Positions 13,901 to 41,662 of a stretch of 64,000 nucleotides of DNA are shown piece by piece. Every line of letters begins with the position of its first letter. The stretch's first letter is position 1. A program made the translations under genes and the position numbers. Source of the DNA: Harmothoe impar (Eukaryota; Annelida; Polychaeta; Phyllodocida; Polynoidae); NCBI GenBank assembly GCA_947462335.1, contig OX381710.1:29233772-29297771 (forward strand), in the 5' to 3' direction. Below the pieces are notes generated by a model. It was not told where the DNA came from and searched no databases. It saw only the letters and a program-made list of their open reading frames with translations.

Positions 13901-14610
13901 CAGCCAAAAACCCTCAGGGAAATACATCCTTTATTACATCACGATTCCCAAACTAGGTCAGAAATGTTCGGTCAACCAATATTGACCCCCCCTTGAGATT
14001 TTTCAGTCATCTGACACATTGGACCCCCTAATTGATCCAAAACAAGCTCTCCTGGTTATGATCACTATACAGCCGAAAACCCTCAGGGAAACCCGTCCTT
14101 TATTACGTCTCGACTCCCAAACTAGGTCAGAAATGTTTGGTCAACCAATATTGACCCCCCCTTGAGATTTTTCAGTCATCTGACACATTGGACCCCCCTA
14201 ATTGATCCAAAACAAGCTCTCCTGGTTATGATCACTATACAGCCGAAAACCCTCAGGGAAACCCGTCCTTTATTACGTCTCGAATCCCAAACTAGGTCAG
14301 AAATGTTTGGTCAACCAATATTTATCCCCCCTTGAGATTTTTCGGTCATCTGACACATTGGACCCCCCTAATTGATCCAAACAAGCTCTCCTGGTTTCAA
14401 TCACTATACAGTCGAAAACCCTCAGGGAAACGCATCCTATATTATGTCTAGATTCCCAAAGTAGGTCAGAAATGTTTGGTCAACCAACATTTACCCCCCC
14501 TTGAGATTTTTTGGTCATCTGACACATTGGACCCCCCTAATTGATCCAAAGAAGCTCTCTTTTTTTTGATCACTATGGAGAAAAAACCCTCAGGGAAACC
14601 CGTCCTTTAT

Positions 14611-14992
14611 TTTCTATGGAATACAGCAGTGCCATTGACTTAACCAAGGAAGGCCGTATTACACACCCCCTGTTAGATAACCCATGGCCGTATTACACGA
14701 CCCTATGACGTCATCAACATGGCAGTTTGTTTACATTTTGAACGATGTAGAAAATTGTCATTTCAGCCCCCCTACCCCCCTGTAGGCCCTAATACTTTAA
14801 TTTGAATCGGAAAAGGTAAAAAATAAACACAAAGGCACACTCGTTTCTGGTCTTTTGAAGGGTTATTTCACTTGTTGACCCTCGGGCCGCATTTCACTCG
14901 GCCTGCGGCCTTGTGAAATACGGCCCGAGGGTCAACTCGTGAAATAACCCTCCTAAAGACCAGAAACTCGTGCACCTTTGTCTATTTATTAC
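14611..14992. repeat. ~380-bp insertion in the array with a 152-bp hairpin (14830-14981)
   Basis: This non-satellite segment starts TTTCTATGGAATACAGCAG and ends near CTTTGTCTATTTATTACG, where the tandem unit resumes. Its 3' part is a long hairpin with ~65-bp arms (CAAAGGCACACTCGTTTCTG against its inverted partner ending GTGCACCTTTG) and a CGGCCTGCGGCC loop. A CRE-like TGACGTCA lies in its 5' part. Confidence 0.85.
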
Positions 14993-17900: not shown

Positions 17901-18036
17901 TTTGGTCAACCAACATTTACCCCCCCTTGAGATTTTTTGGTCATCTGACACATTGGACCCCCCTAATTGATCCAAAGAAGCTCTCTTTTTTTTGATCACT
18001 ATGGAGAAAAAACCCTCAGGGAAACCCGTCCTTTAT

Positions 18037-18418
18037 TTTCTATGGAATACAGCAGTGCCATTGACTTAACCAAGGAAGGCCGTATTACACACCCCCTGTT
18101 AGATAACCCATGGCCGTATTACACGACCCTATGACGTCATCAACATGGCAGTTTGTTTACATTTTGAACGATGTAGAAAATTGTCATTTCAGCCCCCCTA
18201 CCCCCCTGTAGGCCCTAATACTTTAATTTGAATCGGAAAAGGTAAAAAATAAACACAAAGGCACACTCGTTTCTGGTCTTTTGAAGGGTTATTTCACTTG
18301 TTGACCCTCGGGCCGCATTTCACTCGGCCTGCGGCCTTGTGAAATACGGCCCGAGGGTCAACTCGTGAAATAACCCTCCTAAAGACCAGAAACTCGTGCA
18401 CCTTTGTCTATTTATTAC
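18037..18418. repeat. Second copy of the ~380-bp hairpin insertion
   Basis: It appears identical to the segment at 14611 and is offset by exactly 3426 bp. The flanking satellite units share variants at the same offset, so this copy arose by segmental duplication and not by independent insertion. Confidence 0.85.
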
Positions 18419-20845: not shown

Positions 20846-23800
20846 AGGGTTTTCGGGTGTATAGTGAATAAAACCAGGAGAGCTTGTTTGGATCAATTAG
20901 GGGGGTCCAATGCGTCAGATGACAAAAAAAACTCATGGGGGGGTCAATAATAGCTGACCGAACATTTCTGACCTAGTTTGGGAGTCGAGACGTAATAAAG
21001 GAAGGGTTTCCCTGAGGGTTTTCGGCTGTATAGTGATTAAAACCAGGAGAGCTTGTTTGGATCAATTAGGGGGGTCTAATGTGTCAGATGACAAAAAAAT
21101 CTCAAGAGGGGGGTTACTAATAGCTGACCGAACATTTCTGACCTAGTTTGGGAGTCGAGACGTAATAAAGGACGGGTTTCCCTGAGGGTTTTCGGCTGTA
21201 TAGTGATTAAAACCAGGAGAGCTTGTTTGGATCAATTAGGGGGGGTCCAATGTTTCAGATGACCAAAAAATCTCAAGGGGGGGTCAATAATGGTTGACTG
21301 AACATGTCCGACCTAGTTTGGGAGTCGAGACGTAATAAAGGACGGGTTTCCCTGAGGGTTTTCGGCTGTATAGTGATTAAAACCAGGAGAGCTTGTTTGG
21401 ATCAATTAGGGGGGTCCAATGTGTCAGATGACCAAAAAATCTCAAGGGGGGGGGGTCAATAGTAGCTGACCGAACATTTCTGACCTAGTTTGGGAGTCGA
21501 GACGTAATAAAGGACGGGTTTCCCTGAGGGTTTTCGGCTGTATAGTGAATAAAATCAGGAGAGCTTGTTTGGATCAATTAGGGGGGTCCAATGTGTCAGA
21601 TGACCAAAAAATCTCAAGGGGGGGGTCACTAATAGCTGACCGAACATTTCTGACCTAGTTTGGGAGTCGAGACGTAATAAAGGACGGGTTTCCCTGAGGG
21701 TTTTCGGCTGTATAGTGATTAAAACCAGGAGAGCTTGTTTGGATCAATTAGGGGGGTCCAATGTGTCAGATGACCAAAAAATCTCAAGGGGGGGTCAATA
21801 ATGGTTGACTGAACATGTCCGACCTAGCTTGGGAGTCGAGACGTAATAAAGGACGGGTTTCCCTGAGGGTTTTCGGGTGTATAGTGAATAAAACCAGGAG
21901 AGCTTGTTTGGATCAATTAGGGGGGTCCAATGTGTCAGATGACAAAAAAATCTCAAGGGGGGGTCAATAATAGCTCACCGAACATTTCTGACCTAGTTTG
22001 GGAGTCGAGACGTAATAAAGGACGGGTTTCCCTGAGGGTTTTCGGCTGTATAGTGATTAAAACCAGGAGAGCTTGTTTGGATCACTTAGGGGGGTCCAAT
22101 GTGTCAGATGACCAAAAAATCTCAAGGGGGGGTCAATAATGGTTGACTGAACATGTCCGACCTAGCTTGGGAGTTGAGACGTAATAAAGGACGGGTTTCC
22201 CTGAGGGTTTTCGGGTGTATAGTGAATAAAACCTGGAGAGCTTGTTTGGATCACTTAGGGGGGTCCAATGTGTCAGATGACCAAAAAATCTCAAGGGGGG
22301 GTCAATAATGGTTGACTGAACATGTCCGACCTAGCTTGGGAGTCGAGACATAATAAAGGATGGGTTTCCCTGAGGGTTTTCGGCTGTATAGTGATTAAAA
22401 CCAGGAGAGCTTGTTTGGATCAATTAGGGGGGTCCAATGTGTCAGATGACGAAAAAATCTCAAGAGGGGGGTCACTAATAGCTGACCGAACATTTCTGAC
22501 CTAGTTTGGGAGTCGAGACGTAATAAAGGACGGGTTTCCCTGAGGGTTTTCGGGTGTATAGTGATTAAAACCAGGAGAGCTTGTTTGGATCAATTAGGGG
22601 GGTCCAATGTGTCAGATGACAAAAAAATCTCAAGGGGGGGTCAATAATAGCTCACCGAACATTTCTGACCTAGTTTGGGAGTCGAGACGTAATAAAGGAC
22701 GGGTTTCCCTGAGGGTTTTCGGGTGTATAGTGAATAAAACCAGGAGAGCTTGTTTGGATCAATTAGGGGGGTCCAATGTGTCAGATGACCAAAAAATCTC
22801 AAGGGGGGGTCAATATTGGTTGACCAAACATTGTTGACCTAGTTTGGGAGTAGGGACGTAATAAAGGACGGGTTTCCCTGAGGGTTTTCGGCTGTATAGT
22901 GAATAAAACCAGGAGAGCTTGTTTGGATCAATTAGGGGGGGTCCAATGTGTCAGATGACCAAAAAATCTCAAGGGGGGGTCAATAATGGTTGACTGAACA
23001 TGTCCGACCTAGTTTGGGAGTCGAGACGTAATATAGGATGCGTTTCCCTGAGGGTTTTCAGCTGTATAGTGATTAAAACCAGGAGAGCTTGTTTGGATCA
23101 ATTAGGGGGGTCCAATGTGTCAGATGACCAAAAAATCTCAAGGGGGGGGGGTCAATAATAGCTGACCGAACATTTCTGACCTAGTTTGGGAGTCGAGACG
23201 TAATAAAAGACGGGTTTCCCTGAGGGTTTTCGGGTGTATAGTGAATAAAACCTGGAGAGCTTGTTTGGATCAATTAGGGGGTCCATTGTGTCAGATGACC
23301 AAAAAATCTCAAGGGGGGGGTCAATAATAGCTGACAGAACATTTCTGACCTAGTTTGGGAGTCGAGACGTAATAAAGGACGGGTTTCCCTGAGGGTTTTC
23401 GGGTGTATAGTGATTAAAACCAGAAGAGCTTGTTTGGATCAATTAGGGGGGTCCAATGTGTCAGATGACGAAAAAATCTCAAGGGGGGGTCAATATTGGT
23501 TGACCGAACATTTCTGACCTAGTTTGGGAGTCGAGACGTAATTAGGACGGGTTTCCCTGAGGGTTTTAGGGTGTATAGTGATTAAAACCAGAAGAGCTTG
23601 TTTGGATCAATTAGGGGGGTCCAATGTGTCAGATGACCAAAAAATCTTAAGGGGGGGTCAACATTGGTTGACTGAACATTTCTGACCTAGTTTGGGAATC
23701 GCGACGTAATAAAGGACTGGTTTCCCTGAGGGTTTTTCTCCATAGTGATCAAAAAAAGGAGAGCTTGTTTGGATCAATTAGGGGGGTCCAATGTGTCAGA

Positions 23801-23912
23801 TGACCGAAAAAATCTCAAGGGGGGGGTCAATATTGATTGACCGTACATTTGTGATCTAGTTTAGGAGTTGAGACGTAATTAGGAAGCGTTTCCCTCCGGG
23901 CATAGAGATTAA
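20846..23912 (-). repeat. Reverse arm: ~18 tandem ~168-bp units in inverted orientation
   Basis: From about 20846 the same unit is read in reverse complement (CCCTGAGGGTTTTCGG, GAGCTTGTTTGGATCAATTA, CTGACCTAGTTTGGGAGTCG). The switch happens within CCCCTTGAGGGTTTTCGGG, inside a unit, at the shared TGAGGG motif. The arm ends near 23912, where the inverted outer GGGCT/AGCCC-rich flank begins. Confidence 0.93.
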
Positions 23913-27774: not shown

Positions 27775-30700
27775 ATGGCAGCGACGGCCGTCCTCCAGCG
27801 CCTACAGTCACGAGCAGCTCAGGCTGAGCAGATCATCTCCCAGCTCAGGGCTCAACTAGACGTGATCAGGAAGTCTGCAGGTGAGTTGGAACTTTAGTAC
27901 TTGTATTTCTATTCTCGTGGTACCGGTACACTACTGATGTGCCAAATAATCCCTACCAGCCTTGTACAATGGAAACCTTTCGCACTCCAGTCAAATGGAA
28001 AGGTTTTGTATGTAGACTACATGTTGGAAAGTTCCCAATTTTGTCCTACCGGTATTTGAAAATGCATTGGCAATTTCAAATATGAAAATAAGCATACCTC
28101 ACATTTGCTATGAGAGCGGTTTACTTTTATAGATTTATCAATGCAATCTGTGATTGGTATTCACTTGGTATAATTCTGAATCATGTCCGGTAACTGGTTG
28201 TCTTTAATTTGTTACATAGTTGAAAATGCCTGTAAAGAGGACGAGGCGAGGCTCCGGACAGAGAACAACCAACTCCGCACAGAGGTTGATGAATTAAGGG
28301 AGCATCTCACTCAAGTAGAGATTAGGAACGGAGGTGAGTGGCCCTACTATTTGAGACCAAATGACAGCGCTTGTTTGAGCCAATGCAGTGAGTAATGACA
28401 GTAAAACTACACGACATGTTTCCTCCTACAGTTAAGCAGGTACCGATGCAGTGAGTAATGACAGTAAAACTATAAGACATGTTTCCTCCTACAGTTAAGC
28501 AGGTACCGATGTAGTGAGTAATGACAGTAAAACTACAAGACATGTTTCCTCCTACAGTTAAGCAGGTACCGATGTAGTGAGTAATGACAGTAAAACTATA
28601 AGACATGTTTCCTCCTACAGTTAAGCAGGTACCGATGCAGTGAGTAATGACAGTAAAACTATAAGACATGTTTCCTCCTACAGTTAAGCAGGTACCGATG
28701 TAGTGAGTAATGACAGTAAAACTACAAGACATGTTTCCTCCTACAGTTAAGCAGGTACCGATGTAGTGAGTAATGACAGTAAAACTACAAGACATGTTTC
28801 CTCCTACAGTTAAGCAGGTACCGATGTAGTGAGTAATGACAGTAAAACTACAAGACATGTTTCCTCCTACAGTTAAGCAGGTACCGATGTAGTGAGTAAT
28901 GACAGTTAAACTACAAGACATGTTTCCTCCTACAGTTAAGCAGGAACCGATGCAGTGAGTAATGACAGTTAAACTACATGACGTGTTTCCTCCTACAGTT
29001 AAGCAGGTACCGATGCCTGCACGGGGACCAGCTTCAGTTGCGGCTGCAGTGGCGCCACCTACAGCAGCAGCTCCCGTAGCGGCAGCTAGCGACGTTACAC
29101 AGGAGCCACCAAAGAAGCAGGCCAAAAAAGAGAAGAAGGAGAAGAAAGGTAGCACACTAATCGCTCTATAGAATTGACTTACTGTTCTCATATGTTCACT
29201 TCATATCAATTGCTCAATGGAGCCTAAAGGTGTCGTATTTTTTGTACTCTTTATACACAACTTCGAGTTGGCTGGAAATGATTATATAAGCTCATGATAA
29301 AATACAAACAAACGATGTCAACTTGAGAGCATCGGGTGAAGAATGACATTCAAAGCTGTATTGCCAACTTTGGCGTTTTATACTTTTATATATAAATTAT
29401 AATGCTACTTTGAACAGGAGGGGATGGCAAACCCAAGAACCAGGCGCCGGCTGGACCTGAGCTGCCAGTGGATGTGTCGCGTCTGAGTTTGCGTGTGGGC
29501 CATATCGTGACAGCTAAGAAGCATCCTGATGCCGACGGGCTTTACATCGAGGAAGTGAACCTGGGCGAGGACAGGAACCGCACCATCATTAGTGGACTCG
29601 TCAAGCACATCCCACTAGAACAGGTTGGTTGTAGAGCATATATCATAATATGGTCAAATTGGGGCATTTGTGTAAGCTTTATAGGAAGATTTTTTGATTA
29701 TTGGTTTGATACTACAGGCGAAAATAATCGAGGTATCTACTGTATACTGCAAAATGATTAACTTACGACCACTTCAAAAGATTCGGAACCAAAATGGATT
29801 AGACTACATTATAGTAGGAATACATCTGAAGTGCTTTCAATGTTTACACACCATTCGTTTTCAAGAGAATCATTCTACATAGTCTGTCCATTTGGTAACT
29901 GGAATTGCATAAGTTATACCTCTCTTTAAGCGTTACTCCTGTGAGTTATCTGATACATTGGAATAATAATAAAGTGTCTACATTACAACCTGGAATGTCT
30001 TACACTTACAGATGCAGGACCGTCTTGCGATCTTCATGACAAACCTGAAGCCGGCGAAGATGCGTGGCATCCTGTCGGAGGGTATGATTATGTGTGCGAG
30101 TACCCCCGAGAAGGTGGAGATCCTCGAGGTACCGGCCGGTGCTGCCATTGGAGACCGGGTTACAGTGCCAGCATTCCCAGGTATGATACATACTCATTTG
30201 CTACTATAATATATATTGTACCAACATCCAAAGCTGTTGAATATGCATCCATATAATATCTATGACAAGAAATAACCCACACCATTGAAACTCGTAAGGA
30301 GATGCCACTTTCTCTGCTTTTGTTGGAATACTGGCTTTTTCGTTGGGATTTCCATATTAAATTACGTCAATTAATTGGTATTAGCATGCCAGCGTCTTGT
30401 CGACCTGGGAGTGGCATCTCTACGACTGGTAGGGTTTGAAAGAAATGCGTATTCGTATTAAATCGGATCACTCTTAAACGCGACCAGTCTTCTTGGTACA
30501 CTTTCTTTTAGAATACAACGTATGTTATATCCTCGTGTGTACCAACGAACACGTTAAGGACCCCATAATGTTGTAGTCTGCTATTTGTTGGGTGAAGTCC
30601 CTGAATCAAAACACCCCAAAATAGTTTACATGCCAGAGTGACGTAATACAAATATGCCCTTTGTCGTCATGATACATGAATGCAGCTCTACAGAAAGTAT

Positions 30701-30959
30701 TTCCCAGGTAGACATAATGCATTAAGGTCATATCCAACCTTTAAAGGATGAGATCTAATACTTAATGCATACTCACATTCTCTGTTCTACAGGTGAGCCG
30801 GACACGCAGTTAAACCCCAAAAAGAAGGTATGGGAGGCGGTGCAGCCTGACCTCCAGGTGAACGAGAAGGGACTGGCCACCTACAAGGGGGAACCATGGA
30901 CCATAGCTGACAAGGGCACCATCAAGGCCCCCTCCCTCACCAAAGTGGGCATCAAATAG
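27775..30959 (+). CDS. AIMP1: AIMP1 (p43/EMAP II precursor), complete, six coding exons, 303 aa
   Basis: Exons: 27775-27880, 28220-28333, 28999-29148, 29418-29623, 30012-30180 and 30793-30959 (stop TAG). All introns are GT-AG with consistent phases, and 912 nt code for 303 aa (vertebrate AIMP1 is about 312). Residues 1-73 form a heptad-rich coiled coil, the region that binds arginyl-tRNA synthetase in the multisynthetase complex. Residues 74-137 are an Ala/Pro-rich then Lys-rich linker ([12 protein letters not shown]). Residues from about 140 are the EMAP II/tRNA-binding OB fold, with [20 protein letters not shown] (157-166), [13 protein letters not shown] (203-211), MCAS and NPKKK (256-260), ending GIK as in vertebrates. 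The start codon follows an acceptor-like TTGCAG by 2 nt, so an upstream noncoding exon is likely. Intron 2 is almost filled by a 63-bp repeat. An ATTAAA poly(A) signal lies at 31085-31090. Confidence 0.97.
28385..29013 (+). repeat. 63-bp minisatellite (10 units) duplicating the AIMP1 exon 3 splice acceptor
   Basis: Each unit contains GTGAGTAATGACAGT, then AAACTAC, then the acceptor TTTCCTCCTACAG followed by TTAAGCAGGTACCGATG. The last acceptor (28991-28998) is the one opening the real exon 3; the other nine are copies inside intron 2. Units differ at a few positions (CA or TA before GTGAGT; TAAAACTA or TTAAACTA; CAAG, CACG, CATG or TAAG). Because 63 is a multiple of three, a 289-codon open frame arises on the opposite strand by chance. 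Confidence 0.97.
30653..30752. repeat. Family A MITE fragment in AIMP1 intron 5
   Basis: It contains ATGCCCTTTGTCGTCATGAT, ATGAATGCAGC and the terminal motif AACCTTTAAAGGATGAG. It lies just upstream of the last AIMP1 exon, next to a fragment of the 27237-type repeat. Confidence 0.55.
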
Positions 30960-32113: not shown

Positions 32114-32119
32114 ATAATG
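32114..32119. repeat. Left 6-bp target-site duplication ATAATG
   Basis: ATAATG directly precedes the left TIR and is repeated directly after the right TIR (41657-41662). A 6-bp duplication is the usual size for Polinton/Maverick-type integration. Confidence 0.92.
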
Positions 32120-32461
32120 AGTAGTATAGTATGTATCGGAACGGGACTATAGTTAAGTACTGTTTATTACTCAATCGACATGCAGCCAATCAGAGGCCTC
32201 CATTTGGTCACGTGACCGGAAGTGACCTACTTAGGGGATTAGTGGTGACGTCACGTGACCTAGTTAGCCAATCAGAGGCCGCCATTGGGTCACGTGACCG
32301 GAAGTGACCTACTTAGGGGATTAGCGGTGCATTCTGGGTAACCCTGCAGCCAATCAGAGGCCTCCATTGGGTGACCGGAAGTGACCTACTTAGGGGATGG
32401 TGCATTCTGGGTAACCTACTGACCTACTTAGGGGACCGGAAGTGACGTCACATGACCTAAT
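32120..32461 (+). repeat. Left terminal inverted repeat (342 bp)
   Basis: It begins AGTAGTATAGTATGTATCGG and matches the reverse complement of 41315-41656 at all but two positions by eye. It is dense in host-type motifs: CCAATCAG (NF-Y-like), TCACGTGA (USF/TFE-like), ACCGGAAGT (ETS-like), TGACGTCA (CRE) and GCATTCTGGG (ZNF143/THAP11-like). Weaker inverted similarity continues inward to about 33210. Confidence 0.95.
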
Positions 32462-32534
32462 GGCCAACCGGAAGTGACCTCATTGAGGATCACGTGACCG
32501 GAAGTGACCTGATTGATCACGTGACCGGAAGAAG

Positions 32535-32565
<31 letters not shown>

Positions 32566-33137
32566 GACGTCACGCGACTTAATGAAGAGATGAGCGTCTT
32601 TAAGGGGTCACGGGCTTTAAAATGTGATATCTTTTTTTTTGGAGGAGGAGGCGAGTCTCTTATTTTTTTTTGGTAAACTAATAAAAAACACCACGATATA
32701 AGTTTTTTTTTCATTTTTTATTGTTTTACGAGCGACTGGAAGTGACTTATTGAACTAGTTAGAAGCGTTCTTTAGAGTGTATAAGGGGGAAGGAGGGGAA
32801 GGAGGGGAGGGGGGGAGGGGGGGAGGGGGGGAGGGGGGGCCCTTTTAACATGCATGGGGAGGGGGGCGCTTTTAGGATGCATGGGGCGAGTGGGGGAGGG
32901 GGGGAGGGGGGGGGAGGGGGGCACTCTAGAGGGGGGGGGGGCACTCTAAGGGGCGCGTTTGTCTCTTTTAAGAAAGAAAAAGATTTTCAATCGAGAGACA
33001 CGCTTCTTCCTCTCGAGAGGAAGAAGCGTGTCTCTTCGTGTTTTTTTTTTGTTTATCACGTGCTGCGATGAGGTGATCAGCTGCGACTGGAGGAAGTGAC
33101 ACTTTAAGAGATCGCGCGTCTTAATTGTTATGATATA

Positions 33138-33172
<35 letters not shown>

Positions 33173-33210
33173 ACTAATAAAGAAGACGTATGAAAATAAA
33201 ACACAACAAT
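32462..33210. repeat. Subterminal region of PolB element: GAA repeat, G-rich blocks, degenerate inner inverted repeat
   Basis: It contains further ACCGGAAGTGAC and TCACGTGACC copies and a GAA run near 32528-32563. GGGGGGA blocks lie near 32790-32945, followed by a T-run near 33143-33168. The segment 33100-33210 (AAGAGATCGCGCGTCTTA, ACTTACTAATAAAGAAG) is an imperfect inverted match to 41075-41150, so the element's inverted ends are longer but diverged inside the 342-bp core. No gene is seen. Confidence 0.7.
32994..33035. repeat. Perfect 42-bp palindrome
   Basis: AGAGACACGCTTCTTCCTCTC is followed with no spacer by its exact reverse complement. It lies between the left TIR and the 3' end of the minus-strand death-domain gene. 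It could end transcription or act in DNA folding; nothing in the sequence decides this. Confidence 0.93.
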
Positions 33211-33960
33211 TCACATGTCCGTCGTTCTCGTTGTTTCTTGCTTGATAAAGTCAAGTAATATCGCGATGCCGAGGCCAAACTTTCCCATGTCCTCAGTCAA
33301 CACTCGAAGGAGTTCAAAAGGCGTACCGCCGGCGCCGTCAGCTTCATCTTGCCACATTTTCAACACTCGGAAGGCCCACTCAGCGGGACTTCCTCCGTAT
33401 TCGCATTCTTCAGCGATCTTATCTAACCTCTCAGGCGACAATTTTAAATGGTCCCCCACCTCTTTCCACCTGCTACCCAGACGTCTGCCGAGGGTGCCCA
33501 AGTGCTTATGCATCGCGCGCGAGTCGGGGTTTTCGAAATCCAACCCCTGTCTGTGGAGAAGGGCCATCCACTGAGCCAACAGTTCCATGCGTCTAATGCG
33601 GGTGAAGACGCGACCGAGCTCGCCCCATCTATGACGATGCGGGGTTTCACCCCACCACACTCGGAACATCGCCGTACACAGCTCCTCCGGTGTCTTGACA
33701 CTGCGCTCTACTAGAGCATCCATACGGGCGGCGCTGACTTTTAAGCTACTGCCCAACTCTCTCCAACAGCCGCTCAACTCTTTACCTAGTTGACGAAGCA
33801 AGGCGTCGCTATAGGCTAACCGCCGCTGTCCTACCTGTCGGGTCTCCCCATCATCGGTCTGCTGCCTCGCGCCGCGTCTCACGTCGTCAAGCCGCATTAA
33901 CTTTTTTTCAGGCGCACCGGGCGGTGAAGGCGAGCTTGAAAGTGGAATAGCTTGAGCCAT
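33211..33960 (-). CDS. Tandem death-domain protein of the PolB element (249 aa)
   Basis: ATG at 33958-33960, stop at 33211-33213. After a Pro/Ser-rich, then charged N-terminus (1-48) I see two death-domain-like repeats. The first, about residues 50-132, has LGKELSGCWRELGSSLKV, MDALVE and FRVWWGE. The second, about 149-240, has LGRRLGSRWKEVGDHLKL, RLDKIAEEC, RVLKMWQDE and PFELLRVL. The pattern of a helix-2 Trp before ELG/EVG, a 'D-x-I/L' step, then an aromatic Trp in helix 5 followed by a helix-6 Leu pattern is that of FADD/TNFR-type death domains. No caspase, kinase, TIR or transmembrane segment is present. The likely role (inference) is to interfere with or mimic host death or innate adaptor complexes. 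It is transcribed away from the other two genes; a TATA box lies at 34098-34106. The domain call rests on motif reading only. Confidence 0.82.
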   Translation of the reverse strand: MAQAIPLSSSPSPPGAPEKKLMRLDDVRRGARQQTDDGETRQVGQRRLAYSDALLRQLGKELSGCWRELGSSLKVSAARMDALVERSVKTPEELCTAMFRVWWGETPHRHRWGELGRVFTRIRRMELLAQWMALLHRQGLDFENPDSRAMHKHLGTLGRRLGSRWKEVGDHLKLSPERLDKIAEECEYGGSPAEWAFRVLKMWQDEADGAGGTPFELLRVLTEDMGKFGLGIAILLDFIKQETTRTTDM

Positions 33961-33974
33961 CTCGTCTCGTCTTG

Positions 33975-34050
33975 GCGGCGGCGGCAGCGGCGGCGGCGGC
34001 GGCGGCGGTGGCGGCGGTGGTGGTGGTGGCGGTGGTGGTGGTAGTAGCCG
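33975..34050. repeat. GGC/GGT trinucleotide repeat in the leader of the death-domain gene
   Basis: A run of GGC and GGT triplets (GCC/ACC on the transcribed strand) occupies the presumed 5' UTR between the TATA box and the ATG of the minus-strand gene. Confidence 0.85.
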
Positions 34051-34097
34051 TTACTGGGGTCAGAGGCGATATGTTTTTTTTCCAACAGAAATGAGAG

Positions 34098-34106
34098 CTT
34101 TTTATA
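34098..34106 (-). promoter_or_regulatory. TATA box of the death-domain gene
   Basis: TATAAAAAG on the minus strand, about 138 nt upstream of the ATG at 33960. Transcription would start near 34070. Confidence 0.65.
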
Positions 34107-34616
34107 CAGAGGGAGTTTAATCCCATTTCCAACAGCGCTCCAGCTGTCTAGCGCCCTGTCCGCATGACGCTTTTTCAGCCGCTCCGCTCCTTAAGAGCTT
34201 AGATGACGAGGGGGTGTGGCATCGCTATCCGTGGAGACCAGCTGAAAACGGTGTTTTTTCCTCACTCATAGCCTTAATACCTCCTACCCCCTACCCGAGG
34301 ACGTCTCCCTCCCTCTGACATTCATTGTAACAAACGTCAGAGGTCAGGTGAAAATCGGATTTTTTTTTCATGCACAGCCTTAGGCAGCTGTCACCCCTCC
34401 TTATTGAACTAGCCGGCCGCCCGCCCGCCTGGCCGGCCCGGTCTACTCACCACGGCAGGAGGTGGCGATTTTTGTCTTACACTTAAGTCGCTCACCACAT
34501 GCACACGCCTCTACTCACAGACAGACACGTTCGTCTTAGGGGGGTCCTGCTTCACGCCACACGCCTCCTGTAGTTTTTTTTTGTATACACACTGTAAGCT
34601 CATCACCGTTACCGTT

Positions 34617-34982
34617 AATCCTTTATACAGCTAACGCGCGCTGAATGGCTGAACAGGGTGGTAAGCGGCTTAGCTCACCACAGTGGATCCCTCAAAAAGG
34701 GATCCAGCTGAAAACGTCATACCTTATGTCTTTGTGAATGGCCGCCGCCGGTCAGTCGACGGCAGGCAGCAACCGCTTAACCCTTTATACAGCTAATGCG
34801 CGTTGAATTGCTGAACAGGGTGGTAAGCGGCTTAGCTCATCATCACAGTCGATCTCTCAAAAGAGGGGGGGGGGAAAGGGATCCAGCTGAAAACGTCATG
34901 CCTTATGTCTTTTTGTTTCTCTTTGTGAATGGCCGCCGGCCAGCCGGCGGCAGCTGAACAGGGTCGGTAAGTAGCTTAGCTC
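34617..34982 (+). promoter_or_regulatory. Two and a part ~160-bp direct repeats upstream of the PC4-like gene
   Basis: Units starting near 34617 and 34779 share CCTTTATACAGCTAA, GCTGAACAGGGTGGTAAGCG, GGGATCCAGCTGAAAACGTC and CTTTGTGAATGGCCGCCG. A third partial copy (GCTGAACAGGGTCGGTAAG) runs into the TATA box. Related GCTGAAAACG segments lie near 34240. They look like repeated upstream control elements or an origin; the function is inferred from position only. Confidence 0.7.
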
Positions 34983-34998
34983 TAGAAGCGAGAAGGCG

Positions 34999-35006
34999 TA
35001 TATAAG
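34999..35006 (+). promoter_or_regulatory. TATA box of the PC4-like gene
   Basis: TATATAAG lies 61 bp before the chosen ATG (35067). A TCACTCATTC initiator-like stretch lies about 25-30 bp downstream. Confidence 0.75.
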
Positions 35007-35066
35007 GGGCTTGGAAACCTCCATTCACTCACTCATTCTTTTTTGCTGCTCTCTACAGTCACCACC

Positions 35067-36656
35067 ATGAGCAAAAGACAACAGCTAGCGGCGTTCAAGA
35101 ACAAGAAGACTACGCGGAACAGCGTTCGTTTAGCGTCAGTGCCTGCTCTTGCTACTGAACATGAGACTACCGCCGCAGCCGGTTGGTCTTATCACCCTCC
35201 TGCTGTAGCGAGCGCTCGCGGCAGTAGTAGTAGTAGTAGTAGTAGCAGTAGCACTAGTAGTAGCAGTAGTAGTAGTAGTAGTGGTAGTAGTACTAGTAGT
35301 ACTACTGGTAGCAGTCGTCGTGCTAGCGACGTTGTTACACTCGCGACGGTACACGTTGCTGCTAAGCGCGCTGCCGCTGCTACCGCCGTCCCGCCTGCCG
35401 CTGCTGCTGCTGCTGCTGCTGCTGCTGCGCCTGCTACTGCTGCGCCTGCTACGGCTGCGCCTGCTGAGGCTGCTGCTGCGCCTGCTACTGTTGCGTCTGC
35501 TGCGGCTGCGCCTGCTGCGGCTGCTTCTGCTGCACCTGCTGCTACTGCTACTACTACTGACGACAACGCTCCTGGCACAGCGCAGTACTGGCAACCGGGT
35601 TTTTACCTCCCCACTACTGTTGATGACTTTGATGACCTGCCGCACGTTGCACAGCCCCTCTCCTCCACCACTACATCGACGGACGCCCTCGACGCCGCTC
35701 GCGCTGAGAGTTACAGCTATTCGGACACTCAGCCCCTGAACCGAGAAGAAGAGGAGGAGGAGGAGCAGCGACAGGGTGAGACAGAGAACGACGCTGACGA
35801 CGAGGCGTACGAAGAACCCGAAGGGCAAGGGGTGAGCGGTACGTTTTTCGGCTTCCCTCTTCGACCTTTCGACCTCACTTCCTCCACTGCTAGCGCCCCC
35901 CCGTCCGGTCCGTGGCGACTGCCCTCACCGCCACCTTACGAGGGCGGCGGCGGCGCTTCATCTTCTACCGCTACACACAGCACGGACGGCGTGTGGCTGC
36001 GCTGTTCCAACAACGAGACCTCCGATACCACCAGCGCTGACGCTGCTCCTGCTATCGGTTCTGCTGCTGATTCAGCTCACGCTGATGGTGTTACTCATCC
36101 TGCGGGTGTGAAACGTTCTAAGGTGAGTTCCAGAACAACAAGGCCCACTAAGAAGAGAAAAATACAAGAAAAAGAAGGAGATGGACGAGAAGAAGCAGAG
36201 AAAACACTCGGGTTAGAGTTCTGCTTAGACGGAGCTTTGACGCTGGAGATCTGGGAGGACGTGGCTAGACTGTCTAGGAGGCCGCGCTACACAAAAGACG
36301 GCCAGGTGAAAGAGGCGTCTCTGACCAGAAGCAAGCGAGTGCACTTCACGGCCGACGCGCTGCGCGAGCTCATAGCACGCATCGCCGATATCCGCGCAGT
36401 GGTGCGCATACGCGACACAGCGGCCGCGCAAGGAAAACCTAATCACACCCCCTGGTTCGCAGTGCTGGATGAGGCGGGCGAAGTGTACGCAGCTGTGAGC
36501 TACTACAGCGGTAAGAACCTCGTCCACGTGCGCAAGTACGAAGGTCCTGACAAAAAACCCACACAGCAGGGGGTGACGCTGTCCGCCAGAGCGCTCAAAG
36601 AGTTGGATGACAAAACAGAGATCATTCTGAAATATCTCGGCATAGATTCGGAATGA
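35067..36656 (+). CDS. PC4-like (putative ssDNA-binding) protein with long disordered N-terminus, 529 aa
   Basis: The start is the ATG at 35067 (context ACCACCATGA), downstream of a TATA box; the open frame upstream has no ATG. Residues 1-375 are low complexity: Ser runs (about 50-90), Ala/Pro runs (about 115-165), an acidic EEEEEEEQ block (about 227) and a basic nuclear-localisation-like TKKRKIQ (about 362). The C-terminal ~150 residues are ordered. A segment at about 382-445 (LTLEIWEDV... HFTADALRELIARI) is followed by one at about 459-529 (WFAVLDEAGEVYAAVSYYSG, NLVHVRKYE, QGVTLSARALKEL). The second matches the PC4/Sub1 pattern of strands, 'K/R-x-Y-x', a 'K-x-G-V/I-x-L' strand and a final amphipathic helix. 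The first looks like a degenerate repeat of it. An ssDNA-binding role beside a protein-primed polymerase would make sense but is inferred. It lies 199 bp upstream of the polymerase ATG. Confidence 0.75.
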   Translation: MSKRQQLAAFKNKKTTRNSVRLASVPALATEHETTAAAGWSYHPPAVASARGSSSSSSSSSSTSSSSSSSSSGSSTSSTTGSSRRASDVVTLATVHVAAKRAAAATAVPPAAAAAAAAAAAPATAAPATAAPAEAAAAPATVASAAAAPAAAASAAPAATATTTDDNAPGTAQYWQPGFYLPTTVDDFDDLPHVAQPLSSTTTSTDALDAARAESYSYSDTQPLNREEEEEEEQRQGETENDADDEAYEEPEGQGVSGTFFGFPLRPFDLTSSTASAPPSGPWRLPSPPPYEGGGGASSSTATHSTDGVWLRCSNNETSDTTSADAAPAIGSAADSAHADGVTHPAGVKRSKVSSRTTRPTKKRKIQEKEGDGREEAEKTLGLEFCLDGALTLEIWEDVARLSRRPRYTKDGQVKEASLTRSKRVHFTADALRELIARIADIRAVVRIRDTAAAQGKPNHTPWFAVLDEAGEVYAAVSYYSGKNLVHVRKYEGPDKKPTQQGVTLSARALKELDDKTEIILKYLGIDSE

Positions 36657-36662
36657 GAGACG

Positions 36663-36835
36663 CTCAACGCTCACGCGCGCACACACACACACACAGCGTT
36701 TGACGTACGCTGTATGAGACAGACAGACAGACAGACAGACGGATACACAGACAGCAGACAGAAAGATAGTTACATAGACGACAGATTGATAGATGGCTAG
36801 ATAGATAGATAGATAGTTAGACGGCTAAGTAGTTG
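36663..36835. repeat. Microsatellites between PC4-like and PolB genes
   Basis: An (AC)n run, an (ACAG)n run near 36718-36740 and a (GATA)n run near 36797-36815 fill the short intergenic space. No TATA box was recognised for the polymerase gene. Confidence 0.85.
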
Positions 36836-36855
36836 GTAACCGAGTGAAAAAAAAC

Positions 36856-39800
36856 ATGACACAGTACGTATGCGAAAAGTGTTTCAAAATGTTTAAAAGA
36901 GCGTACAACCACGAGAGACACGTAGAAAATTGTAGAGTAGTAGCTAAGTTTTGCCCTCTATGCGGCGAAGGGGATTGCCGAAAGAGCGCTTGTCGACGCG
37001 AATCTCTGGACGGGGTGACCGTCCCTCCGCGCATATGTGCTGTACCGAACGGGGAGGAAACGTTCACGGCGAATTGGCCTGCGATACAAACGGGCGTCAG
37101 GATGCACGGGACTCGCGTGAGTGTAACAAACTTCAGGCTACCAACCGGCGAGTTGAGTGACGCTGTAGATACTATGCGTCGCATTCACTTGACACAAAGA
37201 TTCAGATACAAAGTGGGTTTCTCGGTAGGCTTACTGTTACAACACAGAGAAGACAAGAGCAAACTGCGCTACTTCCACGCCTCCCAGAACAACGCAACTC
37301 TCATACAACCGCTCCCTACTGTAACTAATTCAGAAACTTTGGAAGAGCTCCTCTCAAAGATGCAAAACACCGTCGCTTGCGAGGAGGTACGGAAACTTTG
37401 CGACGCTGACACCAAGTGGCACGTTCTTTTTCCTACCAATTTGAACATCTGCGTTTACATGGGACCGGGGGAATTCCCCATAGGCGGTAGGATCACTCAG
37501 GCCGGTCGAGTTGGAAAGAGAAGCGGCGTGTTAGATTTTCCCAACAAGGACAACCTCTGCATCTTCCGCTGCATTTCCTTTCACTTATACAACACCAGCA
37601 AGCGCGCTTCAGATTTGTTACGTCAGTTCTGTCCCGCTGCCACACCTGAATCCTTTCCGGGTCTGAACATCCGCGACTTACCCGCGTTAGAGAACTTGTT
37701 TGACGTACAAATAGCGGTTTACACCGCGTCGCGTCAAGTGCCGGGGCGGAAGTTGAGAAGACGCGTTACTCTGATCAGACCGCCTTCCAGAACTGTGGCC
37801 GCCCGAGGTAAAGTCAACCTACACCTGACGGCGAAAGGCGGTTTGCACGTCTCTCTCGTCACGGACTTCAACGCGTACGCGGGCATATACGAATGTTGCA
37901 AGTGTAAGGCGGCGTTCACCACCGAGTTCTTGCTGAAGAGACACAGGAACCAGCTTTCCTCTTGCCGACAAGTCAAGTTGCGCTACGTAGGTGGCATCTA
38001 CCAAAATTCGAGAACGATTTTCGAAGCGCTAGCAGACTTCTCCATTTTTCCCCCCGACGGACATTCCGGAATCTACCCTTACAAGATCGCCTTCGATTTC
38101 GAGGCTTTCTTCAGACCGTGCAAAGAACCGTCGACGGAGCACGTGTCCCTGCTGTGGGATCACGTCCCTTTGTCGGCTAGCGTCGCATCCGACTTTCCGG
38201 GGTGGGAGGGGCCCGTCTGCTTCGTCAGAGCGTCCGACGCAGATTCCGACCCCTTGTTGGACCGAGTTTTAAATCACATAAACGAGAACGCCAAAGCGAT
38301 CGGGGAAGCTGTGCTAGAACTTTACCGACCGACGTTAGCGAAGTTAGATGCGGCGATAGGTGAAGCTCTCCTGCTGGAGGAGGCGACGTTCACCACCCCT
38401 TCTCCAGGCGGCTTCGCTGCGGCTCAGACCAGACACCCGTTAGTTCAACTGAAGAAGCGTCTTCTGAGATACATCCGTCAAGCTCCAGTGGTGGGCTTCA
38501 ACTCGGGGCGTTACGACTTGAACCTGATCAAAATACGCCTTCACTCGTTCTTCGCCTCCGGAGACCGAAGAAACCAAGAATTCAGCGTCATAAAGAGAAG
38601 CAATCAATACTTGGCGGTTTACACACAGCACACGGTTTTCTTGGACGTAGTCAACTATTTGGCACCCGGTTACAACTACGCGACCTATTTGCGAGCTTTC
38701 ACCAGGAACGAAGAGAAAGGTCACTTTCCTTACGAATGGATGACGTCTACCAGGAAACTGGCAAACAGAACGCTGCCGCCGAGATCGGCTTTCGACAGCG
38801 AGCTGACGGGCGTCAAAATGTCCGAATCCGACTACGCCGCATGTCAGAAAGTTTGGTCCGACGAGAAGATGCAAACTATGGAAGACTACTTGATCCACTA
38901 CAACAACAAAGACGTGAAACCTTTCATAGAAGCTCTGAAAAATCACGCTAAATTTTTCCAAGATCGCGGCATCGACATGTTGAAAGACGGAGTTTCTCTC
39001 GCCGGTTTGACTTTACGCTTCCTCTTCCAAAACCTAGAAGACGCGTTCACAACGTTTCCCCAGTTCGACGCCGTCCTCCACGCTCTGATCAAAGAGAATC
39101 TAGTCGGCGGTCCTTCCATCATCTTCCATAGATTTCACGAGAAGGGCACCACGCGGATAAGGGAGCACAAGTACGGCGAAGAAGCGAGACCGTGCCAACA
39201 CATCCTAGGACTAGACGCTAACTCACTGTACTTGCGCTGCATGAGCGAAGCGCACTGCACGGGCTATTACGCGGTGAGACGGCCCGAGACCGAGTTCAAG
39301 CCCGAAATCAGGCAAAGAAACTCTCACAGCGCTTTGGAGTGGTTACGCTTCGTAGAGCACGACCGCGACGTGAAACTGCGCCACGCTCTGAACGGCGGCG
39401 AGATGGCGGTAGGCTGTCGGAGAATTCGCGTGGACGGATTTCACGCGGCCTCTAATACGGTTTTCCAGTTTCACGGGTGTTGGTTCCACGCTCACGAGTG
39501 CATACCGTCGCACCGATATCAGTGCGCTTCACTGAGAGAGGAGAGACGCGACAGAACGACCAGAGTAAGCGCTTACTTGAAAGCGTTAGGTTACAAGCTG
39601 GTCGTCGTGTGGGAGTGCGAATGGCGAGAGATGAAGCGTCGAGATGAGCGGGTCAAGGCCTCCCAACAACGCTGGAAGGTTGACGCTTTGAAAGTGTCTC
39701 GAAACGCGATGAGCGAGAGCGACATCCTTTCCGCTGTGAAAGAGGAGAAAATGTTCGGTTTAGTTCAAGTGGACATCACTACGCCGCCTCACCTACGAGA

Positions 39801-40983
39801 GTACTTCGAAGAAATGACCCCCGTTTTCAAGAACGCGACCGTTTCAAAATCGGACATAGGCCCTCACATGTCAGACTTTGCGCAGGAAGAAAAGCTGTTG
39901 AGCACACCTCAGAGATGTCTGATAGGGAGTTACCACGGAAAAAATATTCTCTTGGGAACGCCGCTTCTCAAGTGGTATTTAGAGCACGGTTTGATAGTCA
40001 CCAAAGTGCAGCTGGTGGTAGAATACCTACCTAAACGCTCCTTTGCCGGTTTCGCGGACGAAGTGACGGCGGCGCGAAGACGTGGCGACGTGAACGAGAA
40101 CGAGAAAATTCTGTCAGACTGTTACAAGTTAATGGGAAACGCTACGTACGGTAAAACAATCTGCAACAAAGAAAAACACACGGCGGTGAGATACACTGAC
40201 AGTCGGAAGTTCGAACTATTGGCCAATTCGTGGCGCTTCAAAAAGGCGTCCGAGTTGACTTCCGATCTGTTTGAAGTCGAACTACAACCGAAAACGGTCA
40301 AGAACAACCTCCCTATTCAGATAGGGTTCATGGTATACCAGTACGCGAAGTTGAAAATGTTAGAGTTCACATACGACTTCTTGGATAGATTCGTCGATCG
40401 GCGCGATTATGCCCTTTGTCAAATGGACACCGACAGTCTTTACATGGCTCTCAGCGGTGCCACGTTGGATGACCTAGTGAAACCTCGCCTGAGAGAGACG
40501 TACTTCAGAGAGAAACGAAAGTGGCTTCCGACAGCGGTGTGCGACGAGCACTTAGAGCTTTTCGTGAAGACAAAAACGGAAAGAGTGCGAGAATGGTGTG
40601 CGCCGCCCGGCGGATGTTGTGAGAGACGGTACCTTCACGATCTGAGAACTTCGGGGCTCATGAAAGCGGAGTGGGAAGGTGACGGGATCCTAAGTCTCAA
40701 CCCTAAGACTTACATTTGCTACGATCGAGTCAGCGACACCGGTGAAAGAAAATCCAAAAAATGGAGTGCAAAAGGCGTACAGAAGAAACAAAACCCCCAG
40801 GAACCAGACGCCTTCTTGGATGTTCTTCGCCAACGAAAAACTCTCATTGCTGTAAATAGAAATTTCAAAGTGGTGCGAAACAAAATGGTCACCTACACCA
40901 TAGAGAAAGACGGCGTGCGCTACTTGTATTATAAGCGTCGCGTGCATTCTGACGGTGTGACAACGAGTCCTTTAGAGATATGA
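36856..40983 (+). CDS. Protein-primed family B DNA polymerase (PolB), 1375 aa
   Basis: The first in-frame ATG is at 36856 and the stop TGA at 40981-40983. A C2HC/C2H2 finger lies at residues 6-26. An OTU-like region follows, with D232-N-L-C235 in DNLCIFRC and a candidate His331 (GGLHVSLV), and a second finger lies at about 347-371 (YECCKCKAAF). The 3'-5' exonuclease has ExoI DFE (414-416), ExoII FNSGRYDLN (about 548-556) and ExoIII YNNKD (to about 686). The polymerase has motif A DANSLY (from 787), motif B KLMGNATYG (from 1091) and motif C DTDS (1191-1194), plus the C-terminal KWSAKGVQKK. These motifs and the large A-to-B gap (protein-priming insertions) fit Polinton, adintovirus and bidnavirus polymerases. 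The frame is uninterrupted and every catalytic motif is present. It would replicate linear DNA from a terminal protein; no separate terminal-protein gene is seen. Confidence 0.95.
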   Translation: MTQYVCEKCFKMFKRAYNHERHVENCRVVAKFCPLCGEGDCRKSACRRESLDGVTVPPRICAVPNGEETFTANWPAIQTGVRMHGTRVSVTNFRLPTGELSDAVDTMRRIHLTQRFRYKVGFSVGLLLQHREDKSKLRYFHASQNNATLIQPLPTVTNSETLEELLSKMQNTVACEEVRKLCDADTKWHVLFPTNLNICVYMGPGEFPIGGRITQAGRVGKRSGVLDFPNKDNLCIFRCISFHLYNTSKRASDLLRQFCPAATPESFPGLNIRDLPALENLFDVQIAVYTASRQVPGRKLRRRVTLIRPPSRTVAARGKVNLHLTAKGGLHVSLVTDFNAYAGIYECCKCKAAFTTEFLLKRHRNQLSSCRQVKLRYVGGIYQNSRTIFEALADFSIFPPDGHSGIYPYKIAFDFEAFFRPCKEPSTEHVSLLWDHVPLSASVASDFPGWEGPVCFVRASDADSDPLLDRVLNHINENAKAIGEAVLELYRPTLAKLDAAIGEALLLEEATFTTPSPGGFAAAQTRHPLVQLKKRLLRYIRQAPVVGFNSGRYDLNLIKIRLHSFFASGDRRNQEFSVIKRSNQYLAVYTQHTVFLDVVNYLAPGYNYATYLRAFTRNEEKGHFPYEWMTSTRKLANRTLPPRSAFDSELTGVKMSESDYAACQKVWSDEKMQTMEDYLIHYNNKDVKPFIEALKNHAKFFQDRGIDMLKDGVSLAGLTLRFLFQNLEDAFTTFPQFDAVLHALIKENLVGGPSIIFHRFHEKGTTRIREHKYGEEARPCQHILGLDANSLYLRCMSEAHCTGYYAVRRPETEFKPEIRQRNSHSALEWLRFVEHDRDVKLRHALNGGEMAVGCRRIRVDGFHAASNTVFQFHGCWFHAHECIPSHRYQCASLREERRDRTTRVSAYLKALGYKLVVVWECEWREMKRRDERVKASQQRWKVDALKVSRNAMSESDILSAVKEEKMFGLVQVDITTPPHLREYFEEMTPVFKNATVSKSDIGPHMSDFAQEEKLLSTPQRCLIGSYHGKNILLGTPLLKWYLEHGLIVTKVQLVVEYLPKRSFAGFADEVTAARRRGDVNENEKILSDCYKLMGNATYGKTICNKEKHTAVRYTDSRKFELLANSWRFKKASELTSDLFEVELQPKTVKNNLPIQIGFMVYQYAKLKMLEFTYDFLDRFVDRRDYALCQMDTDSLYMALSGATLDDLVKPRLRETYFREKRKWLPTAVCDEHLELFVKTKTERVREWCAPPGGCCERRYLHDLRTSGLMKAEWEGDGILSLNPKTYICYDRVSDTGERKSKKWSAKGVQKKQNPQEPDAFLDVLRQRKTLIAVNRNFKVVRNKMVTYTIEKDGVRYLYYKRRVHSDGVTTSPLEI

Positions 40984-41314
40984 AAAAAAAAAAAAAAAAA
41001 AAATAAGCGTGTGCATCTTTTCAAAAATAGAGTGTTTATCAAGATTGAAAAAAAAATAAATTAAAAAAAATTAAAAGAAAATATTGTTGTGTTTTTATTA
41101 TCATACGGCTTCTTTTACTAGTAAGTCGCGCAGTCTCTTAAAGCGTCACTCATGTGACGACGTCGCTTCCAGTCACGGGATCCTAAACAAAAAAAAAACT
41201 TCTTCTTCTTCCGGTCACGTGATCAATCAGGTCGCTTCCGGTTGGCCATTAAGTCGTGTGACGTCACTTCCGGTCACGTGACTCATCAGGTCACTTCCGA
41301 TCACGTGATCCTAA
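40984..41314. repeat. 3' end of PolB gene and right subterminal region
   Basis: An A-run at about 40984-41003 follows the PolB stop, then AATAAATTAAAA (near 41056), which may serve as a poly(A) signal. The segment 41075-41314 holds diverged inverted copies of the left subterminal motifs (CTTCCGGTCACGTGA, TGACGTCAC). Confidence 0.7.
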
Positions 41315-41656
41315 ATTAGGTCATATGACGTCACTTCCGGTCCCCTAAGTAGGTCAGTAGGTTACCCAGAATGCACCATCCCCTAAGTAGGTCACTTCCG
41401 GTCACCCAATGGAGGCCTCTGATTGGCTGCAGGGTTACCCAGAATGCACCGCTAATCCCCTAAGTAGGTCACTTCCGGTCACGTGACCCAATGGAGGCCT
41501 CTGATTGGCTAACTAGGTCACGTGACGTCACCACTAATCCCCTAAGTAGGTCACTTCCGGTCACGTGACCAAATGGAGGCCTCTGATTGGCTGCATGTCG
41601 ATTGAGTAATAAACAGTACTTAACTATAGTCCCGTTCCGATACATACTATACTACT
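41315..41656 (-). repeat. Right terminal inverted repeat (342 bp)
   Basis: Reverse complement of 32120-32461 with two mismatches (GGCCTCC for GGCCGCC; GTCATATG for GTCACATG). It ends CATACTATACTACT and is followed by the ATAATG duplication. Confidence 0.95.
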
Positions 41657-41662
41657 ATAATG
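41657..41662. repeat. Right 6-bp target-site duplication ATAATG
   Basis: Identical to 32114-32119. The inferred empty site carries one ATAATG between ...CTGGATT and TCATG.... Confidence 0.92.

What the first reader, a model, noticed from the sequence alone, without database searches (positions are those of the whole stretch)
33211..33960. A virus-like PolB element carries a protein with two tandem death domains
Both halves of the 249-aa protein (about 50-132 and 149-240) show the Trp/Leu pattern of death domains and little else. Death domains build host apoptosis and innate-immunity adaptors (FADD, TRADD, MyD88 type). A stand-alone tandem pair in a mobile replicon suggests capture of a host adaptor to block or redirect cell-death signalling. 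I know of apoptosis-related genes (Bcl-2-like) in related viruses, but not of this arrangement.
Basis: partly seen in the sequence, partly recalled or inferred. Interest (0 to 1): 0.88.

Follow-up and report, generated by a model that had tools for sequence, protein, structure and literature searches.

The report
Split-genome virus-like element with death domains
An animal genome carries thousands of copies of a virus-like element whose genes are split between separately inserted pieces, and the DNA-copying piece also carries a cell-death-type adaptor protein that may jam the host's self-destruct signalling.

Summary
The minus-strand ORF 33960..33211 (249 aa) has two tandem death domains (Pfam PF00531, 9.2e-8, 32.5 bits, cut-off 22.6). 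It lies in an exactly bounded 9,537-bp insertion (32120-41656) with terminal repeats, AGTAGT/ACTACT ends and a perfect 6-bp target duplication, Maverick/Polinton hallmarks (PMC8097293). Its only long genes are PolB, a PC4-like protein and the death-domain protein.

The larger find is in the host genome (1.51 Gb). The 35-bp terminus occurs 10,431 times (control 0). A second class of about 10.45 kb shares 98 identical terminal bp and encodes integrase, adenain-like protease, packaging ATPase and (by motif recall) capsid proteins, but no PolB was found in it. Of 52 listed integrase sites, 1 has PolB within 15 kb (chance 2.7). The Maverick gene set thus looks split between separately inserting segments. 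Satellite-like classes exist too; one encodes a second, fused death-domain pair.

Best reading: segment A of a bipartite Maverick, its death-domain pair a bivalent decoy for host death signalling. The decoy role is inferred; no fold could be predicted.

The parts
32114..32119 (.). left target-site duplication ATAATG
   Evidence: identical 6 bp at both ends
32120..32508 (+). left terminal inverted repeat; outermost 98 bp (32120-32217) identical to those of the capsid-type class
   Evidence: 342 bp at 99% without gaps, 389/394 bp at 95.7% with gaps; 98-bp identity
33211..33960 (-). tandem death-domain (DD-DD) gene, 249 aa
   Evidence: Pfam Death 9.2e-8, two stretches
33553..33810 (-). death domain 1, about aa 51-136
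   Evidence: Pfam Death 63-127 in the whole protein; 19.4 bits alone
33241..33516 (-). death domain 2, about aa 149-240
   Evidence: 18.4 bits alone; homologous to DD1
34100..34106 (-). TATA-box-like TATAAAA upstream of the DD-DD gene
   Evidence: consensus match only
34999..35005 (+). TATA-box-like TATATAA upstream of the PC4-like gene
   Evidence: consensus match only
35067..36656 (+). PC4-like protein, 529 aa, low-complexity N-terminal part, PC4 domain at the C-terminus
   Evidence: Pfam PC4 21.9 bits on the ORF (cut-off 25), 25.4 bits on the C-terminal piece
36856..40983 (+). PolB, 1375 aa, with OTU-like motif in the N-terminal part and a Vsr-like endonuclease insert
   Evidence: Pfam DNA_pol_B_2 3.6e-7; motifs; Vsr structures 3.4e-7 with the profile
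41263..41656 (-). right terminal inverted repeat
41657..41662 (.). right target-site duplication ATAATG

Best explanation
The locus is one integrated copy of 'segment A' of a bipartite (at least two-segment) Maverick/Polinton-type virus-like element that has recently multiplied in an animal genome. Segment A (about 9.5 kb) carries PolB, a PC4-like protein and a tandem death-domain protein. Segment CAP (about 10.45 kb) carries integrase, protease, packaging ATPase and candidate capsid genes. Because the ends are the same, PolB would copy both, the integrase would insert both with 6-bp duplications, and the capsid would package both. The DD-DD protein has no effector domain and most likely works as a bivalent decoy or cap in host death-domain complexes (TNFR/RIPK1/FADD or MyD88/Pelle type), delaying cell death or immune signalling while the element multiplies. 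SHOWN: the domain pair, boundaries, shared ends, separate insertion with target duplications, split gene set, high copy number, small divergence of copies. INFERRED: trans-complementation, packaging, host origin of the domains, decoy function.
For: Tandem Death match and homology of the halves. Element bounds, ends and 6-bp duplication; 8 of 8 further DD copies have perfect, mutually different duplications. 10,431 exact termini, control 0. CAP pieces: rve integrase 50.2 bits, Peptidase_C5 21.7 (cut-off 21.3), Adeno_IVa2 25.1 (cut-off 21) and no PolB frame. A and CAP identical over 98 terminal bp. 8 of 8 examined units of the CAP size class have perfect duplications. 33 of 37 DD sites linked to PolB, 1 of 52 integrase sites with PolB within 15 kb and 3 of 52 within 20 kb, chance within 15 kb 2.72 +- 1.57. 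DD frame full length in 8 of 9 copies; pN/pS 0.16-0.19 in 3 copies. A second DD-DD in class D, 150 of 150 scored copies without stops. DD1 basic, DD2 acidic in 5 of 5 full-length proteins.
Against: No fold, binding or expression data. Each death domain alone is below Pfam's cut-off. Capsid and penton names rest on recalled motifs; no Pfam, PHROGs or PDB match and no IMG/VR relative. No free DNA or particle was looked for. The adjacency test uses exact 40-base words on part of one contig, so diverged or rare one-piece copies would be missed. Two units with the same ends are 13.2 and 15.9 kb long; no A or CAP gene was found in the pieces read. B and C classes also have the ends, so sharing ends does not by itself prove a segment. 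Selection figures rest on 4 against 6-7 changes.
Confidence: 0.6

Rival explanations
1. A and CAP are unrelated deletion derivatives of an ordinary one-piece Maverick that persists elsewhere in the genome or population; the split is an accident and both are mobilised by the full-length parent.
For: Related PolBs are also seen on contigs of 16-18 kb, the usual Maverick size (sizes only, gene content unknown). Non-coding classes B and C show that non-autonomous units thrive here.
Against: 1 of 52 integrase sites has PolB within 15 kb, below chance; none of the 40 paired units in the first 5.3 Mb of C1 was found to hold both gene sets (the CAP-size units other than two were not read through). The two sets are complementary and both are abundant (PolB word 2,068, integrase word 1,173).
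Confidence: 0.15
2. Purely intracellular transposon system: A and CAP complement each other inside the nucleus and virions are no longer made.
For: Thousands of genomic copies; no free DNA or particle evidence.
Against: Protease, ATPase and the other CAP frames are open in the copy read; even nearly non-coding classes keep a size of about 9-10 kb, as packaging would require.
Confidence: 0.3
3. The DD-DD protein acts in the nucleus in replication or transcription of the element rather than on cell death.
For: It is encoded beside PolB and a PC4-like protein; THOC1 is among the weak PDB matches; in class D the DD-DD is fused to the N-terminal region of the PC4-like protein.
Against: RIPK1, FADD, TRADD and TNFR1 match as well or better. 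In class D only fragments of PolB were found, yet a DD-DD is kept.
Confidence: 0.2
4. The DD-DD protein activates death or NF-kB signalling, either to aid spread or as a host-serving defence against competing elements.
For: Death-domain adaptors can activate when overexpressed (general knowledge); two diverged DD-DD proteins exist in one genome.
Against: No effector domain, caspase, kinase or DED in the protein.
Confidence: 0.12

Closest known systems
Maverick/Polinton elements (vertebrate Mavericks, PMC8097293: passages, section 7)
   Same: 6-bp target duplications, (AGT)2//(ACT)2 ends, TIRs of about 400 bp, PolB, integrase, protease, ATPase
   Different: Intact ones are 12.7-24.6 kb with seven or eight core ORFs in one element; here the gene set is divided between units of 9.5 and 10.45 kb, with a DD-DD gene
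Adintoviruses (definition from passages of PMC11071296; the original paper PMC8502044 is not held)
   Same: PolB with OTU-like motif; integrase with a weak chromodomain hit; adenain-like protease
   Different: PolB and integrase are on different units; no Hexon match could be made by search
Bidna-like viruses such as Vesanto virus (PMC8363768, abstract and passages; PMC4061559, passages)
   Same: PolB and terminal inverted repeats; genome divided into segments with similar ends
   Different: Segments of 3.3-5.8 kb described as ssDNA and parvovirus-related; here 9-10.5 kb units inserted in the genome with an integrase and adenovirus-type genes
Viral FLIPs, e.g. MC159 (PMC5580472, passages)
   Same: Small viral protein (MC159 241 aa) with two tandem death-fold domains, capping host death-signalling assemblies
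   Different: Those are death EFFECTOR domains; these match Death, not DED
Host proteins with doubled death domains in invertebrates (PMC2246300, passage)
   Same: double death-domain repeats
   Different: they are C-terminal parts of large CED-4/Apaf-1 homologues, not stand-alone

Membership tests
Death domain (PF00531) | Sequence profile above curated cut-off | tested here: met
   32.5 bits against 22.6 for the whole protein; each half alone below
Death domain (PF00531) | Six-helix death fold | not testable with these tools
Viral FLIP | Two tandem death-effector domains | tested here: not met
   Pfam lists Death (and a sub-threshold bDLD3), no DED
Maverick/Polinton | 6-bp target duplication, TIRs, (AGT)2//(ACT)2 ends | tested here: met
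Maverick/Polinton | PolB | tested here: met
Maverick/Polinton | Integrase, capsid, protease and ATPase in the same element | tested here: not met
   absent from the window element's ORF list; integrase, protease and ATPase are on the other class
Adintovirus | PolB with N-terminal OTU-like domain | tested here: inconclusive
   D236, C239, H335 invariant in 27 sequences, but no Pfam OTU hit
Adintovirus | Hexon and integrase in the genome with PolB | tested here: not met
   not in the window element; integrase on the partner; Hexon assignment rests on recall
Bidnaviridae | Parvovirus-type NS1 helicase and jelly-roll VP | tested here: not met
   no such Pfam hit among the scanned ORFs of A and CAP; small ORFs were not scanned
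Segmented virus | Segments share ends and insert or replicate as separate units | tested here: met
   98 bp shared, separate duplications; replication not tested
Segmented virus | Segments depend on each other and are packaged | not testable with these tools
   needs experiments

The most novel reading that the evidence does not exclude
A segmented Maverick: a virus of the adenovirus/Polinton lineage whose genome is divided into a polymerase segment armed with a tandem death-domain inhibitor and a capsid/integrase segment, each integrating on its own through shared 98-bp ends, accompanied by size-matched satellite segments, one of them with its own second DD-DD protein: a natural multipartite integrating DNA virus of animals, caught during a burst of thousands of copies.
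Probability: 0.6. Interest if true: 0.93.

Novelty: new variant of a known kind. Interest (0 to 1): 0.87.

Why it matters
If right, it shows that the Maverick/adintovirus gene set can be divided between separately inserting segments with shared ends, a step that links one-piece Polintons with segmented PolB viruses and with satellites. It also supplies a natural tandem death-domain protein, laid out like a vFLIP but from another branch of the death fold, kept in two diverged forms; this makes it testable whether such elements survive by blocking death-domain assemblies. Thousands of little-diverged copies mean that the spread is recent enough to be dated and studied in living populations.

Tried and rejected
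Searches that led nowhere: IMG/VR for PolB, the DD protein, their alignments, the terminus and the candidate capsid protein gave no confirmed relatives. PHROGs and NCBIfam had nothing for the DD protein. PF00770 against the whole genome gave 0 matches, but its control rang nowhere; the protease found later scores only 21.7 bits, so that negative was false.

Considered and rejected: that the ORF is chance (Pfam score, homologues, mostly silent changes); that the DD gene lies outside the element (it is between the TIRs, and 33 of 37 listed copies are linked to PolB); that the lack of capsid and integrase genes makes this a dead fragment; that the size split is a simple pair (my first reading): 18 of the 27 shorter units are not the DD/PolB class.

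Limits and results against: 20 of the 100 listed termini on C1 are not in a +/- pair under 20 kb. The 150 copies are the best of 3,924 candidates, hence biased; among the 9 class A units picked by termini, 5 have DD genes 99.5-99.9% and 4 have 96.3-96.4% identical to the window, so 'near-identical' holds within sublineages. In the stretch upstream of DD, 7 of 8 copies differ by 0.09-1.11% and L005 by 17.5%, which I think is an alignment fault at a deletion but did not resolve. Three of the 11 units of CAP size lack the exact integrase word. One B unit (C1:923869-933469) has unequal flanking 6-mers. pN/pS could be formed in 3 copies only; one copy gave no anchor, and of four close copies one has a single non-synonymous and no silent change. 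The same test for PolB failed for want of an anchor. The contig-size signal among PolB relatives (9.3-10.1 kb in 7 of 24 close against 0 of 21 distant contigs of 5-20 kb, Fisher p 0.01) was chosen after looking. Small ORFs were not scanned with Pfam.

Full report
OBSERVATION. Pfam Death matches the whole protein with E 9.2e-8, 32.5 bits (cut-off 22.6), in two stretches. Each half alone keeps Death as its only hit, at 19.4 and 18.4 bits. The protein database gave five relatives at the thresholds used, all unnamed and on contigs of 763-2,726 bases; all match Death, the half-length one below the cut-off. The two halves are homologous to one another (hhalign 95.7, E 9.6e-9). By sequence the nearest solved structures are death domains of RIPK1 (half 2) and FADD/TNFR1 (half 1), all weak. 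DD1 is basic and DD2 acidic in 5 of 5 full-length proteins. No structure could be predicted.

THE ELEMENT IN THE WINDOW. Inverted repeats starting at 32120 and ending at 41656 (342 bp at 99% without gaps; 389/394 bp at 95.7% with gaps) bound a 9,537-bp unit with ends AGTAGT...ACTACT and the perfect 6-bp duplication ATAATG. Vertebrate Mavericks are reported with this end motif, 6-bp duplications and TIRs averaging 402 bp, but as 12.7-24.6 kb units with eight (in one species seven) core ORFs (PMC8097293). Here three long genes are seen: DD-DD (minus), a PC4-like protein (plus; Pfam PC4 above cut-off only for the C-terminal piece) and PolB (plus). DD-DD and PC4 are divergent, each with a TATA-like box upstream. 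PolB has the exonuclease and polymerase motifs, an OTU-like motif (no Pfam OTU hit) and a Vsr-like endonuclease insert. The ORF lists show no other long frame for integrase, capsid, protease or ATPase. The element lies about 1.15 kb downstream of the last exon of an AIMP1-like host gene.

COPIES IN THE HOST. The window lies in an unnamed 1.51-Gb genome. All 150 scored DD matches, the best of 3,924 candidates, are identical in protein and without stops. Eight fetched copies differ from the window at 0-2 of 750 DD bases, have eight different perfect 6-bp duplications, and are 8,967-9,517 bp long. The exact 35-bp terminus occurs 5,201 + 5,230 times, 0 in the backwards control: on the order of 5,000 units, roughly 50 Mb or 3% of the genome (my estimate).

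TWO CODING SEGMENTS. Pairing the first 100 listed termini on contig C1 gives 40 units under 20 kb: 27 of 8.7-9.9 kb, 11 of 10.3-10.5 kb, and two of 13.2 and 15.9 kb. A 10.45-kb unit read in pieces encodes an adenain-like protease (Peptidase_C5, just over cut-off), a 435-aa protein that I take for the major capsid protein, a basic 141-aa protein, a 372-aa penton-like protein, an rve integrase with a sub-threshold chromodomain hit, a packaging-type ATPase (Adeno_IVa2 over cut-off, Pox_A32 just under; a generic helicase family also just over), and 396-, 238- and 110-aa proteins without family. The capsid and penton names are recalled from motifs and gene company; no search backs them. No PolB frame was seen. 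A second copy shares 4 of 4 integrase and 3 of 4 capsid words; the exact integrase word lies in 8 of the 11 units of that size. Eight of eight units examined of that size class have perfect, different duplications; six of these eight hold the integrase word. A and CAP are identical over the outermost 98 bp and then differ. So the two gene sets insert as separate units through the same ends. In the listed part of C1, 33 of 37 DD sites have the PolB word 6-8 kb away, but 1 of 52 integrase sites has it within 15 kb and 3 of 52 within 20 kb; chance within 15 kb is 2.72 +/- 1.57. One-piece genomes, if any, are rare. Genome-wide exact words, control 0 each: PolB 2,068, integrase 1,173, DD 824; these are lower bounds: the PolB word is present in 9 of 9 sampled class A units, the DD word in 5 of 9.

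FURTHER CLASSES. The 27 shorter units fall into A (9; DD at one end, PolB at the other), B (8), C (8) and D (2). In the one B and one C unit read, long frames are nearly absent (B: an Ala-rich 439-aa, a 165-aa and a 117-aa frame; C: none of 110 aa or more), yet size is kept. D is related to A: it shares A's intergenic region, part of the PC4-like protein and fragments of PolB, and its 525-aa protein fuses the PC4-like N-terminal region to another DD-DD (Pfam Death 1.2e-10, 41.8 bits, two stretches) homologous to the window's (25% identity, E 1e-9; hhalign 97.9). 150 of 150 scored copies of this DD-DD, the best of 3,664 candidates, are without stops. Over the outer 98 bp, B differs from A at 0-2 bases and C and D at 9-11; C and D share their outer 640 bp at 97-98%. 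Target duplications were perfect in 5 of 6 B, 5 of 5 C and 2 of 2 D units.

SELECTION. Of the 9 A units chosen by termini, 8 have a full-length DD frame (246-249 aa) and one is broken. Between the two A sublineages the DD core shows 4 non-synonymous changes in 461 sites and 6-7 synonymous in 130 (3 copies; pN/pS 0.16-0.19). Small numbers, but they point to a protein that is kept.

HOW IT PROBABLY WORKS. Shown: the domain pair, boundaries, shared ends, separate integration, split gene set and high copy number. Inferred: PolB from A copies both segments from the shared ends; CAP's integrase inserts both; CAP's capsid packages both, which would explain why even nearly non-coding classes stay near 9-10 kb; B, C and D ride along as satellites. 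The DD-DD protein has no effector domain, so the simplest mechanism is a bivalent plug or cap in host death-domain assemblies, as tandem-DED vFLIPs cap caspase-8 filaments (PMC5580472, passages). I hold the split-genome reading at about 0.8 and the decoy reading at about 0.5; the combined statement is scored 0.6.

COMPARISON AND NOVELTY. It has Maverick ends and gene kinds, but 'all genes in one element' fails; it is better called a split Maverick. PolB-bearing bidna-like viruses have segments (up to twelve in Vesanto virus; PMC8363768, abstract and passages), but with parvovirus-related genes. In the passages seen of PMC11071296 the authors mention genomes with adenovirus-class virion proteins but no recognisable PolB or integrase, which is at least compatible with split genomes elsewhere. 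Invertebrates such as amphioxus, sea urchin and Nematostella have Apaf-1-like host proteins some of which carry double death-domain repeats (PMC2246300, passage), one possible source. In this library no paper holds both 'polinton' and 'death domain' or both 'adintovirus' and 'death domain'; whether segmented Mavericks have been printed was not searched.

Noticed in passing
window 11376-23895: Long array of a 169-bp satellite that switches strand at about 20845 (inverted arms).
   Followed up: no
window 29468-30959 (+): Exons of an AIMP1/EMAPII-like host gene; the last exon ends about 1.15 kb before the insertion.
   Followed up: partly
window 32994-33035: A perfect 42-bp palindrome downstream of the DD-DD gene, the only perfect one of 18 bp or more in the element; role unknown.
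   Followed up: no
window 33141-33169 and 40984-41003: Runs of A directly behind the stop codons of the DD-DD and PolB genes, perhaps built-in tails or traces of RNA-derived capture.
   Followed up: no
L107 1529-2386 (-) and L109 1662-2513 (+): Class D carries two inverted copies of a 285/283-aa gene without any Pfam match.
   Followed up: partly
L101-L106: Classes B and C have almost no long frames in the units read, yet keep the ends and a 9-10 kb size.
   Followed up: partly
L095-L100 (C1:3921638-3934882 and C1:4267525-4283450): Units of 13.2 and 15.9 kb with the same ends; no A or CAP gene found in the pieces read.
   Followed up: partly
PolB relatives P0005-P0033: Contigs of 9.3-10.1 kb are over-represented among the closest PolB relatives, hinting that the split is older than this species (post hoc).
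   Followed up: partly
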